The notes beneath the pieces were generated by a model. It was not told where the DNA came from. It saw only the letters and a list, made by a program, of their open reading frames with translations, and made no database searches. Position numbers and translations under genes: made by a program. 64,000 nt of DNA, taken from the NCBI RefSeq assembly GCF_000424625.1, contig NZ_AUKG01000003.1, positions 310,001-374,000 on the forward strand, read 5' to 3'. Each line of letters begins with the position of its first letter. Position 1 is the first letter of the stretch. Shown here piece after piece: positions 24,996 through 43,128 of this stretch. The stretch is from Conexibacter woesei Iso977N (lineage in GTDB: Bacteria > Actinomycetota > Thermoleophilia > Solirubrobacterales > Solirubrobacteraceae).

Positions 24996-25268
24996 GGACC
25001 GTGCTAGGCGGGGAGGTAGCGGTGCCCTATCGCTCGCAATCCGCTCTAGCGAGGCCGAATCCCCGATCGAGGGGTGTGGTCAACGGGGCTGCGCGCCGTG
25101 GTGGCGTTGAAGGCCCGGGTCCCGCGCGGCGTCGGCTCGTGAACCAGGTCAGGTCCGGAAGGAAGCAGCCTTAAGCGATCACCGGCGGGCGCAGCGGGAG
25201 CTCCCGAGCCGGAGCCACCCTCCGGCGTGGCGCCCGGGGACCGCATTTCGATTTCGGGTGCACGGTCC
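24996..25268 (+). ncRNA. ffs: Signal recognition particle RNA, large bacterial type
   Basis: The conserved apical hairpin GTCAGGTCCGGAAGGAAGCA lies around 25148-25167. The 5' Alu-like part GTGCTAGGCGGGGAGGTAGC starts at 25001. The ends pair: GGACCGTGC (24996-25004) with GCACGGTCC (25260-25268). The length of about 273 nt matches the long SRP RNA with an Alu domain found in Bacillus-like bacteria rather than the short 4.5S form. It works with Ffh to deliver membrane and secreted proteins. A strong terminator follows. Confidence 0.92.
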
Positions 25269-38021: not shown

Positions 38022-39215
38022 ATGCCCCTGACCTTCCGCCGCACCGCCACCACCACCGAGCCCGCCCCGATCGCCGGCGTCGCCGAGCTGACCGCCGCGC
38101 TGCAGTCGCTGGACGCCAACTGCCTCGCCGGCCTGGTCGACGGCCTGCGCGCGATGGAGGACGGCGACCTCACCCGCGCCGCGGTCCCGGTCACCAAGCC
38201 GGTCGACGTCACCACGTTCGACCCGCAGGTCGTGGCGCTCGGCGAGCTGTTCAACGCGATGCTCGGCAAGGCCCAGGGCGCGCTCGAGGCCTACAACTCG
38301 ATGCGCGAGGAGCTGCGCGCCGCGCTCGGCGACCGCTCGTCGCTGACCGACCTCCAGCAGCGCCTGGACTCGCTCAGCGATCGCTGCCTCACCGGCCTCG
38401 GCGCGGGCCTGGACGCGATGGCCCACGGCGACCTCACGGTCGACGTCGTCCCGGTCACGCAGCCGCTGGTCGCCGCCCACGGCGCCCAGGTCGGCGCGCT
38501 GGGCGAGCGGTTCAACATCATGTTGGGCCAGGCCCAGGCGGGACTCAACTCCTACAACAACACGCGCGAGCACCTCGCGGGCACGCTCGGCGAGATCGCC
38601 GCGACCTCCGCGGCCGTCGCCCGCGCGTCGCAGGAGATGACCGACACCGCCGAGCAGACCGCGCAGGCGATCGACGAGATCGCGCGCGCCTCGACCGAGG
38701 TCGCCGCCGGCGCCGAGCAGCAGGTCGCCGCGGTCATCGAGTCCCAGGACCTGGCGCGCGAGGCCTTCGGCGTCGCGGGCGGCACCGCGTCCGCGGTCGA
38801 GGACGGCGTCGCGATGGCCGCCCGGATCGCCGCGATCGCCGACCAGACCAACCTGTTGGCCTTGAACGCCGCGATCGAGGCGGCCCGCGCCGGCGAGGCC
38901 GGGCGCGGCTTCGCGGTCGTCGCCGACGAGGTCCGCAAGCTCGCCGAGTCCGCCTCGGCCGCGGTCAAGGAGACCGAGAAGGCCTTCGGCGGCGTCACGA
39001 CGAGCGTCGACCAGGTCACGGCGGTGATCGCCAGGATGGCCGACGCGACCGACGAGGTCCGCCAGGTCGCCGAGTCGGCCTCGGCCGCGACCGAGCAGGT
39101 CTCCGCCTCGGCCGAGCAGTCCAGCGCCTCGACCGCGCAGGTGACCGCGGCGGCGAGCGCGCTGGCCGACCGGGCCCGCGCGCTCGACGCCTTGGTCGGT
39201 GCGTTCACCGTCTAG
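38022..39215 (+). CDS. Soluble methyl-accepting chemotaxis protein with tandem HAMP-like repeats
   Basis: A 397-residue receptor without transmembrane helices. Two similar modules of about 70 residues ([18 protein letters not shown] near 35 and [18 protein letters not shown] near 125) resemble HAMP domains. The C-terminal signalling coiled coil has the conserved tip [20 protein letters not shown] (near 275) and [16 protein letters not shown]. No obvious input domain and no che genes are nearby, so it may sense internal signals or act outside motility. ATG 38022. Confidence 0.88.
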
Positions 39216-40042
39216 GGCAGGGCGACCAGGAACCCGGCCTTGCTGGCCGTCGTGGTCATCGTCGTGAAGTCGCAGTTGATGCGACCCTGGACCGTCGTGC
39301 TGGCGCCCGAGCCGCTGCCGGGCAGGAAGCCTGCGTGCCAGGTCGTGACCGTCCAGCGTGTCGGCACGTTGCTCGCCGCGGTGATCGAGAGGCCCGAGCC
39401 GCCGCTGGCCGAGATGATGCCGCTGTTGACCTGCGGGTTGGTGCCGCTCTCCTCCTCGGAGATCATGAACTCCACGTTGGTCGTGTCGGAGACGACGTGG
39501 AGGCTCGGGACGTTGCTCGCCGAGCAGCTCATGACCAGGTGCGCGGCCGAGCCGAGGCTGGCGAGCGTCGTGTCGCCCGTGCTGGTGGCGAGGTCGAGGT
39601 GGCCGATGCCCTGGGCGCCGGTGCCCTGGACGAAGCCGGAGCTGTCGATGCCGTCGAGCTTGTCGGCGTCGGCGGCCCTGTCGGCCCTGCCCAGGAACGC
39701 GGCGTTGGCCTCGTCCTTGGTGTAGCCGTTGGGCGTGCCCGCCGGGCCCTGCGGGCCGGCCGGCCCGGTGGCGCCCGTCGCGCCGGTCGCGCCCCTCGCG
39801 CCGGCGGCGCCGGCAGCGCCGGCCGCGCCCGCGGCGCCCCTGAGCTTGGCGCGCTCGGCGGCCTTGAAGTCGGCGAGCGTCAAGGACCCGTTCTTGACCT
39901 CGCGCGAGGTGACCGAGTTCTTGCCGAGCTTGGCGGCGACGGCGGTGACGCCGTCGGCGATCGCGTTGCCGCCGGTGGCGGCGATCAGTGCGATGACGGC
40001 GATCACGAGGGCCGGCGAAGGCCGGTGGAACCACTTGCGCAT
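39212..40042 (-). CDS. Secreted collagen-like repeat protein
   Basis: 276 residues. Signal peptide ([20 protein letters not shown]), a conserved actinobacterial stalk ([20 protein letters not shown]), then about 30 residues of Gly-X-Y repeats ([16 protein letters not shown]) and a C-terminal beta-rich globular domain of about 150 residues. It probably lies on the cell surface or in the medium as trimers. The protein at 57030 carries a similar collagen-like linker on an unrelated body. The stop overlaps the chemoreceptor stop by 4 nt. Confidence 0.8.
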
Positions 40043-40138: not shown

Positions 40139-40957
40139 TCAGCCGGGGACGTAGCGCGAGGCGATCACTCGGCGCGCGGTCGGGCTGCGCCTGACCCAGC
40201 TCAGGAACCGGCCCAGCGCGCCCCTCGGCGCGCCCTTTGTGACGATCGCGAGTGGGCGGCTCGCGGGGTAGCTGCCGTCGGCGATCGTCCTGCGCGTGCA
40301 GCCGACGCCCTCGTAGGCGATCACGTGCAGCGGGGCGGTCAGCGCGAGGTCGGCGTAGCCGAACGCGCCCGGCGTCTGCTCGATGTAGTCGCGTGCCTGG
40401 GTGCTGCTGATCAGCGTCACCGCCTGCCAGGCGACCGGCGTGGCGTCGTCGACGAACACGCTCTGGAAGACGCGGCCGCCGCCGACCGTCGGCGCGAGCG
40501 TGACCGGCGTGATCGCGTCGGTGCGCCGCGACCCGGCGAAGCCGGTCCAGTTGGTCACGCGCCCGGCGACGAGGTCCTGCAGCTGCGCGCGGGAGATCGA
40601 CGCGATCGGGTTGGCGCGGTTGGTGGCCAGGCAGAGACCGCTGCGCGCCAGCCGCGTGAGGACCAGGCCGGGCGGGTCGCCGGGCGCCAGCGCGCGCGAG
40701 ACCATCCCGCCGTCGGCGATCCCGCGCGCGGTGTCGGCCATCCCGGCGCTGGTGCCGCCCGCGGTCAGCGAGAAGCGCGGGGCGCCGGGGACGGCGTGGC
40801 GGTAGAAGTAGGCGAGGTCGGCGACGAGCGAGACGACGATGTCCTGCCCGTTCAAGGTGATGGTGTTGGTCTGCGCCGCGGCCACCGCGCCGCCGCCCGG
40901 CGCGGCGAGCAGCCCGGCGGTCAGCAGCAGCGCCAGCGCGCCGCTCGCGCGCTTCAT
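40139..40957 (-). CDS. PstS-like solute-binding protein
   Basis: A 272-residue exported protein. Signal peptide (residues 8-27), then the phosphate-binding-type fold: the anion-loop equivalent LTAGGTSAGMADTARGIADG, SRAQLQDLVAGRVTNWTG, TVGGGRVFQSVFV and ARDYIEQTPGAFGYADLAL. No lipobox is seen, so it is secreted rather than anchored. No permease or ATPase gene is near. Its ATG overlaps the stop of the subtilase gene by 4 nt, so the two are made together and may cooperate. Confidence 0.82.
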   Translation of the reverse strand: MKRASGALALLLTAGLLAAPGGGAVAAAQTNTITLNGQDIVVSLVADLAYFYRHAVPGAPRFSLTAGGTSAGMADTARGIADGGMVSRALAPGDPPGLVLTRLARSGLCLATNRANPIASISRAQLQDLVAGRVTNWTGFAGSRRTDAITPVTLAPTVGGGRVFQSVFVDDATPVAWQAVTLISSTQARDYIEQTPGAFGYADLALTAPLHVIAYEGVGCTRRTIADGSYPASRPLAIVTKGAPRGALGRFLSWVRRSPTARRVIASRYVPG

Positions 40958-43128
40958 GTCCCGACCGGGCTTCCGCGGCCGACGTCGCCCTTGCCCTTGC
41001 GCAGCCCGGCGACGGTGCTCTGCGCGGCGGTCACCGGGCGCCCGGCGCGGTTCAGCGCGGCGAGCTTGACGCGCTTCGACGTCCCGGCGAGCTTGACCGT
41101 GAACGGCGACGGGCGCGGCGCCAGGTCGGCGGTCCTGCCGCCGAGCGTGAGCCGGTAGCGGCGGATGCTCGTCGTCGAGCCGAGCACGGCCGCCTGGACC
41201 TGCGTGCGCCCGTTCTTGACGGTCGCCGACAGGATCTTCAGCCGCGGCGGCTGGGTCGTGTCGTAGCTGGCGCTGCTCGCGGCCACGACGGTCTGCAGCG
41301 CGTCGACGTAGCCCGCGGTGACCGGCAGGCCCGACCTCGTCGCGTTCTGCATCAACAACGCGCGCAGGTCCGGCGCGGTCAGCCTCGGGTTGACCGACGC
41401 GGCGAGCGCCGCGACGCCGCTGACCGCGGGCGCCGCCATCGACGTCCCGCTCATCAGCACCCAACCGCCGTCCTTGGCCGTCGACAGGATCTGGCCGCCC
41501 GGCGCCGCGACCTGGACGTCGAGCCTGCCGAAGTTCGAGAAGCCGCTGAGGTTCCTGCCCGCCTCCGGGTCGGTCGAGGCGACCGTGATCAGGTTCGGCT
41601 CGGCCAGCGACGCGGGGTAGCTCGGCTGCTGGTCGATGTCGCGGTCGCTGTTGCCGGCCGAGGTGACGACCAGCGCGCCGGCCGCGCCCGCCTCCTGGAT
41701 CGCGGACTGCAGCGACGTGTCGAGGCGGTCGCCGCCCAAGGACAGGTTGATGATCCTGGCGCCGTTGGCCGCCGCGTAACGGACGCCCTCGGCGATCGCG
41801 CCGGTCGTGCCCGCGCCGCCGGAGTCGAGCACCTTGACGATCATCAGCTTGGCCTGCGGCGCGACGCCGACGACGCCCTTGCCGTTGGCCGCGGCGGCGA
41901 CGATCCCGGCGACGTGCGTCCCGTGGCCGTTGCCGTCGGTGAGGTCCTGGCCCGACGTCCTCGACGTCAGGTCGATGCCGTGGACGTCGTCGATGTAGCC
42001 GTTGTGGTCGTCGTCGATCCCGTTGCCGGGGATCTCGTCGAAGTTGGTCCAGATGTTGGGCGCGAGGTCGGGGTGGTCGATCTTCGCCCCGGTGTCGACG
42101 ATCGCGACCGTCACGCCGCGCCCGCGCGACAGCGCCCATGCGGCGGGCAGGTTGAGCATGCTGTCGGGGCCGACCGCCCACTGCTCGCTCTGGCGCGGGT
42201 CGCTGGACGCGGGGGCCTGCGCGGCGCTGGCACGCGCGGTCTGGGCGGGCGTGCCCCAGTATCTCCTGAGGTCCGACAGCTTCGAGACCCCGAGCGTCTT
42301 GGCGACGTCGCGCCTCATCGCGAAGCCGTTGCGGTCCTGGGCGGGGGAGAACGCCAGCGCCTGCGCGCCGATCCTCGCCAGCGCGCGGCCCAGGTCGCCG
42401 CCGCCGAGGTAGCCGCGCAGCGATCCTGAGTATCCGGGCCAGAGGTCGATCCTGCCGTTCCGCATCCCGTTGACGACCGCGGGGCGCAGGCCGCCGGCAG
42501 ACCTGACCGTGACCCGGATCCCGGCGCCGCGCAGCGCCTCGGCGTACATGTAGGCCAACGTCTTGTTCTCGTCGAAGTCCTGGTAGGCGATCCGGACCGC
42601 CGGGCCCGCCACCCGGCGCCCCGTCCCGCCGAGCCCGTTGGTGTCGGCGAACTCGCCGCCGACGGCCTCCGGCAGGCGGCCGTCGAAGACCTCCTGGTTC
42701 AGCCCACGCAGCTCGAGCGTCGAGAGCAGCTTCGAGGCGTCGTCGAGCGCGCGCCGCAGGCGCCTGCCGTAGCGGCGCACGACGCTGGACCGGACCACCG
42801 GGACGACGTGGTCGGCGCTGATCATGTGGCGGTCGTCGGCCAGCTCGACGATGTCGGGCCGCGACAGCTGCGGGTTGGACGAGAACGCCAGCGCGACCTC
42901 GGCACGGCCGTCGTCCAGCGCCTGGAGGCCGGCGTCGGCGACCTTCAGGCTGACGAACTGCGGCGTCGGGTCCATCGCGTAGACGCGCTTGAAGCCCGGG
43001 ATGCAGTTGACGTTCCTCGCGCAGTCGGCCGCGGCGGCGAGCCGGACCCTCGGCGGGACCTGCGCGCGCGCCGTGCCGGCGACCGCCAAGGCCATGAGGA
43101 CCGCAAGGCAGGTGATCGTCCGGCGCAT
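40954..43128 (-). CDS. Secreted S8 serine protease with permuted OpuAC-like solute-binding domain
   Basis: 724 residues. Signal peptide (1-23). Residues 30-170 match the second half of an OpuAC betaine-binding domain (NCIPGFKRVYAMDP, ELADDRHMISADHVVPVVR). Residues 185-300 match its first half (AYMYAEALRGAGIRVTV, MRNGRIDLWPGYSG). The halves are thus in swapped order. A subtilase follows with D about 343 (VAIVDTG), H about 403 (GNGHGTHVAG), oxyanion Asn (SAGNSD) and S about 561 (SGTSMAAP), then an Ig-like tail. The protease looks active. The start ATG 43128 gives a clean signal peptide. Overlaps the PstS-like gene by 4 nt. Confidence 0.85.
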   Translation of the reverse strand: MRRTITCLAVLMALAVAGTARAQVPPRVRLAAAADCARNVNCIPGFKRVYAMDPTPQFVSLKVADAGLQALDDGRAEVALAFSSNPQLSRPDIVELADDRHMISADHVVPVVRSSVVRRYGRRLRRALDDASKLLSTLELRGLNQEVFDGRLPEAVGGEFADTNGLGGTGRRVAGPAVRIAYQDFDENKTLAYMYAEALRGAGIRVTVRSAGGLRPAVVNGMRNGRIDLWPGYSGSLRGYLGGGDLGRALARIGAQALAFSPAQDRNGFAMRRDVAKTLGVSKLSDLRRYWGTPAQTARASAAQAPASSDPRQSEQWAVGPDSMLNLPAAWALSRGRGVTVAIVDTGAKIDHPDLAPNIWTNFDEIPGNGIDDDHNGYIDDVHGIDLTSRTSGQDLTDGNGHGTHVAGIVAAAANGKGVVGVAPQAKLMIVKVLDSGGAGTTGAIAEGVRYAAANGARIINLSLGGDRLDTSLQSAIQEAGAAGALVVTSAGNSDRDIDQQPSYPASLAEPNLITVASTDPEAGRNLSGFSNFGRLDVQVAAPGGQILSTAKDGGWVLMSGTSMAAPAVSGVAALAASVNPRLTAPDLRALLMQNATRSGLPVTAGYVDALQTVVAASSASYDTTQPPRLKILSATVKNGRTQVQAAVLGSTTSIRRYRLTLGGRTADLAPRPSPFTVKLAGTSKRVKLAALNRAGRPVTAAQSTVAGLRKGKGDVGRGSPVGT

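What the first reader, a model, noticed from the sequence alone, without database searches (positions are those of the whole stretch)
40139..43128. Subtilase fused to a circularly permuted OpuAC solute-binding domain, coupled to a PstS-like protein
Residues about 30-170 resemble the C-terminal half of OpuAC/YehZ-type betaine-binding proteins, and residues about 185-300 resemble the N-terminal half. The order is therefore reversed in front of an apparently active S8 protease. The next gene, overlapping by 4 nt, is a second, unrelated exported solute-binding protein. No ABC permease is present. A secreted protease gated by a small ligand, or a two-sensor extracellular system, is one reading. I know of no described system of this form.
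Basis: partly seen in the sequence, partly recalled or inferred. Interest (0 to 1): 0.75.

Follow-up and report, generated by a model that had tools for sequence, protein, structure and literature searches.

The report
Secreted protease fused to binding protein
A soil actinobacterium encodes a secreted protein-cutting enzyme joined to a small-molecule-binding domain whose two halves are in swapped order; the swap is a known arrangement, but the pairing with a protease, kept in about six related species, has no described function.

Summary
The 724-aa gene (40954-43128, minus) encodes a Sec signal, an OpuAC-type binding domain with its halves in reverse order, an apparently active S8 subtilase and a small beta-rich tail. 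A PstS-like secreted protein overlaps it by 4 nt. The swap is not new: B. subtilis OpuAC has the same order, the predicted domain superposes on it end to end (Z 19.4), and this circular permutation within betaine-binding proteins was published in 2008. It also recurs in ordinary actinobacterial ABC transporters. What appears new is the partnership. Solirubrobacter soli carries the same fusion plus PstS-like gene, so it is not an assembly artefact; four other Solirubrobacter genomes encode the binding protein as a separate gene divergent from the protease. I found no membrane anchor or ABC partner. Only two of four betaine-cage positions are aromatic, and the phosphate-binding motifs of the PstS-like protein are gone, so a betaine or phosphate sensor is not supported. 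Most likely the binding domain is a tethered recognition or targeting partner of a secreted protease; ligand gating is possible but untested. New variant of a known kind.

The parts
40954..43128 (-). Fusion gene, 724 aa: signal peptide + circularly permuted OpuAC domain + S8 subtilase + beta-rich tail
   Evidence: full-length relative with the same architecture in L046
43063..43128 (-). Sec-type signal peptide, about residues 1-22, no lipobox cysteine
   Evidence: sequence MRRTITCLAVLMALAVAGTARAQ; only hydrophobic segment of note
42631..43050 (-). OpuAC C-terminal half, residues about 27-166 (placed first)
   Evidence: PF04069 profile 140-254; PDB 5uve/4nd9 C-halves
42226..42600 (-). OpuAC N-terminal half, residues about 177-301 (placed second)
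   Evidence: PF04069 profile 2-126
42175..42252 (-). Ala/Pro-rich linker, residues about 293-318, between binding domain and protease
   Evidence: sequence; alignment with the separate proteins, whose binding protein stops here and whose protease starts here
41332..42123 (-). Peptidase S8 catalytic domain, residues 336-599; Asp345, His402, Asn493, Ser563
   Evidence: PF00082 E 2.4e-58; residue numbers; best PDB match deseasin MCP-01 3vv3
40957..41247 (-). C-terminal tail with a beta-rich region (about residues 628-708), no Pfam match, no transmembrane segment
40139..40957 (-). PstS-like secreted protein, 272 aa, 4-nt overlap with the fusion gene
   Evidence: PF12849 E 5e-20, TIGR02136 below its cut-off; phosphate motifs not conserved

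Best explanation
This is a small secreted-protease cassette of Solirubrobacter and a related genus. An OpuAC-type circularly permuted binding protein, an S8 subtilase without a recognisable propeptide and a degenerate PstS-like protein are exported together; in the window genome and S. soli the binding protein and protease have become one polypeptide joined by a flexible linker. It is not a transporter. The most likely mechanism (inferred) is that the binding domain, and perhaps the PstS-like protein, act as recognition or targeting partners that hold the protease at a particular small ligand, peptide or surface. Shown: domain order and fold, intact catalytic residues, conserved cassette, lack of anchor and of an adjacent ABC partner. 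Inferred: secretion, physical partnership in the unfused species, targeting role. The ligand is unknown and is probably not betaine in the ordinary pocket.
For: The same parts occur in the window genome, S. soli (fused) and four Solirubrobacter genomes (binding protein divergent from the protease), with the PstS-like gene next to the protease except in S. phytolaccae, whose contig ends before it. Fusion of proteins that are separate elsewhere is a usual sign of a partnership (established reasoning, not a test). The cassette proteases form one clade (support 100). The linker is about 25 residues, Ala/Pro-rich, and both parts are complete alone. All cassette binding proteins have a plain signal peptide, whereas the ABC-type permuted relatives examined have a lipobox. 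S8 catalytic residues complete.
Against: No direct evidence of interaction, ligand or substrate. S. soli has a second stand-alone binding protein with no protease nearby (L047), so the binding protein may have a role of its own. The full-length model is unreliable (pLDDT 49.5), so the relative placement of domains is unknown.
Confidence: 0.4

Rival explanations
1. Ligand-gated secreted protease: closing of the binding domain on a small molecule switches the S8 domain on or off.
For: A complete two-lobed binding fold sits directly before an intact protease; two aromatic positions and an invariant Asp and Asn at cage positions are fixed across all six cassette binding proteins aligned, so some pocket is under constraint.
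Against: The linker is long and flexible, and the pair exists as separate proteins in four genomes, so covalent allosteric coupling is not required.
Confidence: 0.2
2. The binding domain has replaced the missing propeptide and works as an intramolecular (or, when separate, trans) chaperone or inhibitor of the subtilase.
For: It occupies the position of a propeptide, and no I9 propeptide domain is found in the protein.
Against: A related subtilase of the same genome without the binding domain also lacks a recognisable propeptide by inspection (L002), so there is no gap to fill; PBP domains are not known to do this (own knowledge).
Confidence: 0.12
3. Fortuitous fusion of two co-regulated secreted proteins with unrelated jobs; the binding domain is a drifting former transport protein.
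For: Betaine cage only half kept, phosphate motifs of the neighbour lost, no adjacent ABC partner; an unlinked copy exists (L047).
Against: Binding domains are 54-67% identical across species and their association with the protease is preserved, which is not what decay looks like.
Confidence: 0.25

Closest known systems
Bacillus subtilis OpuAC (PDB 2b4l, 3chg, 5nxx)
   Same: Same swapped order of the two OpuAC halves, cut at the hinge; the predicted window domain aligns end to end, Z 19.4 over 246 residues.
   Different: Lipoprotein of an ABC transporter with a Trp cage (own knowledge); not fused to a protease; about 15% identical to the model.
OsmF/YehZ-type betaine-binding proteins (PDB 5uve, 5teu, 4nd9, 4wep)
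   Same: Closest in sequence, both halves.
   Different: Normal order; part of ABC transporters.
Actinobacterial permuted OpuAC lipoproteins (Patulibacter, Streptacidiphilus, Aeromicrobium and others)
   Same: Same C-N order of halves.
   Different: Nearly all next to an ATPase and permeases; the N-termini examined have a lipobox; about 24-32% identical.
S8 subtilases: deseasin MCP-01, mycosins
   Same: Catalytic domain and catalytic residues.
   Different: Below the mycosin cut-off (174.7 against 278.75 bits); no C-terminal membrane helix.
PstS family (PDB 4gd5, 4h1x)
   Same: PBP_like_2 family.
   Different: GSTS and SGT phosphate motifs not conserved; no pst transporter genes alongside.

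Membership tests
OpuAC substrate-binding domain (PF04069) | Sequence match above Pfam cut-off over both halves | tested here: met
   61.4 and 38.4 bits for the two halves, cut-off 21.2
OpuAC substrate-binding domain (PF04069) | Two-lobed PBP fold | tested here: met
   model pLDDT 94.6; 2b4l Z 19.4
OpuAC substrate-binding domain (PF04069) | Aromatic cage for quaternary ammonium (AfProX Tyr63, 111, 190, 214 equivalents) | tested here: inconclusive
   Tyr233, Asn267, Phe82, Asp106: two of four aromatic, fixed in all cassette members; positions mapped through the EgtUC alignment, cage numbering from own knowledge
Glycine betaine ABC transporter | Permease and ATPase genes alongside, lipobox anchor | tested here: not met
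   no ABC genes next to the pair; no lipobox
Peptidase S8 | Catalytic Asp/His/Ser and oxyanion Asn in their motifs | tested here: met
   D345, H402, S563, N493
Type VII mycosin (TIGR03921) | Score above curated cut-off | tested here: not met
   174.7 bits against 278.75
PstS phosphate-binding protein | Phosphate-binding Ser/Thr and R-x-SGT residues | tested here: not met
   GQDI/GDQV/GASP and no SGT in the cassette proteins against 4gd5

The most novel reading that the evidence does not exclude
A new type of extracellular sensor-effector: a secreted protease whose activity is set by a small molecule bound in a Venus-flytrap domain that was recruited from transport, with a second binding protein as a co-factor.
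Probability: 0.15. Interest if true: 0.75.

Novelty: new variant of a known kind. Interest (0 to 1): 0.42.

Why it matters
Binding proteins of ABC transporters are known to be recruited as sensor domains of receptors, but I found no described case of one joined to a secreted protease. If the domain controls or targets the enzyme, it would be a natural template for ligand-dependent proteases. The survey also suggests that circular permutation has happened repeatedly, at several cut points, in one binding-protein family.

Tried and rejected
Assembly artefact: rejected, same fusion in S. soli. Two unrelated half-domains: rejected, one confident PBP fold. Inheritance of the permutation from the ABC-type permuted proteins: not favoured, since the cassette clade groups with normal-order Thermoleophilia proteins (support 100), though on long branches. 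Betaine or phosphate sensor: not supported. Full-length structure: poor model, not used for domain placement. Literature searches for a described fusion found nothing in the held library, which lacks most subscription papers. A first S8 tree with duplicated rows placed S. soli apart from the window; the corrected tree joins the two fusions with moderate support, 72.

Full report
What is there. On the minus strand, a 724-aa ORF (43128-40954) is followed, with a 4-nt ATGA overlap, by a 272-aa ORF (40957-40139). The first has a Sec-type signal peptide, two OpuAC stretches in reversed order, an Ala/Pro-rich linker, a Peptidase_S8 domain with Asp345, His402, Asn493 and Ser563, and a beta-rich tail without a Pfam match. 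The second is a PBP_like_2/PstS-like exported protein. Neither has a transmembrane segment beyond its signal peptide by a hydropathy scan. The neighbours are a collagen-like protein downstream and a succinate dehydrogenase/fumarate reductase-like set upstream (named from the sequence by inspection), with no ABC genes.

Is the permutation real and is it new? The binding region predicted alone gives one confident fold (pLDDT 94.6, pTM 0.89). Its best structural match is B. subtilis OpuAC, end to end and colinear (model 1-267 on chain 6-272, Z 19.4), far above the next fold (Z 10.5). B. subtilis OpuAC itself shows Pfam profile 114-256 first, and aligns in two swapped pieces with Lactococcus OpuAC. 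The permuted relationship among 2b4l, 1r9l and 1sw1 was reported in 2008 (PMC2395249). The permutation is therefore a known state of this family.

How widespread is it? In 399 Thermoleophilia genomes, 179 had a match to the binding-domain profile, and only about a dozen showed matches running the full permuted length; some of these are tandem N-C-N-C proteins fused to a permease domain. In 396 Actinomycetota genomes, 207 had a match and about 15 besides the window were permuted. Nearly all permuted relatives outside the cassette lie next to ABC permeases. In a tree of halves put into one order, the cassette proteins group with normal-order Thermoleophilia proteins, apart from the ABC-type permuted set, which suggests an independent permutation; branches are long and this is not firm.

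The cassette. Solirubrobacter soli DSM 22325 has the same fusion followed by the same PstS-like gene with a 4-nt overlap (L046). The cassette proteases form a clade (100) and the two fused ones pair with support 72. No other genome of the window's own genus among those held has it. S. soli also has a second, stand-alone copy of the binding protein (L047).

Function. Export without anchor and without an adjacent transporter argues against uptake. The four betaine-cage positions read Tyr, Asn, Phe, Asp in every cassette member (cage numbering from own knowledge, mapped through EgtUC). The PstS-like proteins have lost the GSTS and SGT phosphate motifs. The recurring association of the binding protein with the protease, fused or divergent, points to a partnership; the long linker and the existence of separate versions favour tethering or targeting over rigid gating. 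That mechanism is inference and nothing here tests it.

Verdict. Observation confirmed; the permutation is ordinary for the family; the protease-binding-protein cassette is a variant for which I found no description, confined to a few related species in the data searched.

Noticed in passing
L141, L145 (cut about 36 residues into the C-half); L081, L147 (cut about 65 residues in): Actinobacterial OpuAC-type proteins with two further circular-permutation cut points: the end of the C-half, then the N-half, then the start of the C-half. With the hinge cut this makes three permutation sites in one family; the smaller fragments of L141 and L145 are short and weak by score but carry the GGPPECP motif.
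   Followed up: partly
L092-L095: Thermoleophilia proteins with a permease domain followed by tandem OpuAC-OpuAC (N-C-N-C), a plausible duplication route to circular permutation.
   Followed up: partly
L056 6746-8721, L057 6806-8932: Two permuted OpuAC-type genes in tandem beside one ABC transporter (Allobranchiibius, Patulibacter).
   Followed up: no
window 39215-40042, minus: Collagen-like protein directly downstream (Pfam match just below cut-off); the protease's best PDB match is deseasin MCP-01, a collagenolytic enzyme (own knowledge). The collagen-like gene is not next to the cassette in S. soli, so probably coincidence.
   Followed up: partly
L046 9905-11707, minus: Alkaline-phosphatase-like gene converging on the PstS-like gene in S. 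soli; not seen in the other cassette loci.
   Followed up: no
window 24999-25265, plus: Bacterial large SRP RNA, 166 bits.
   Followed up: no
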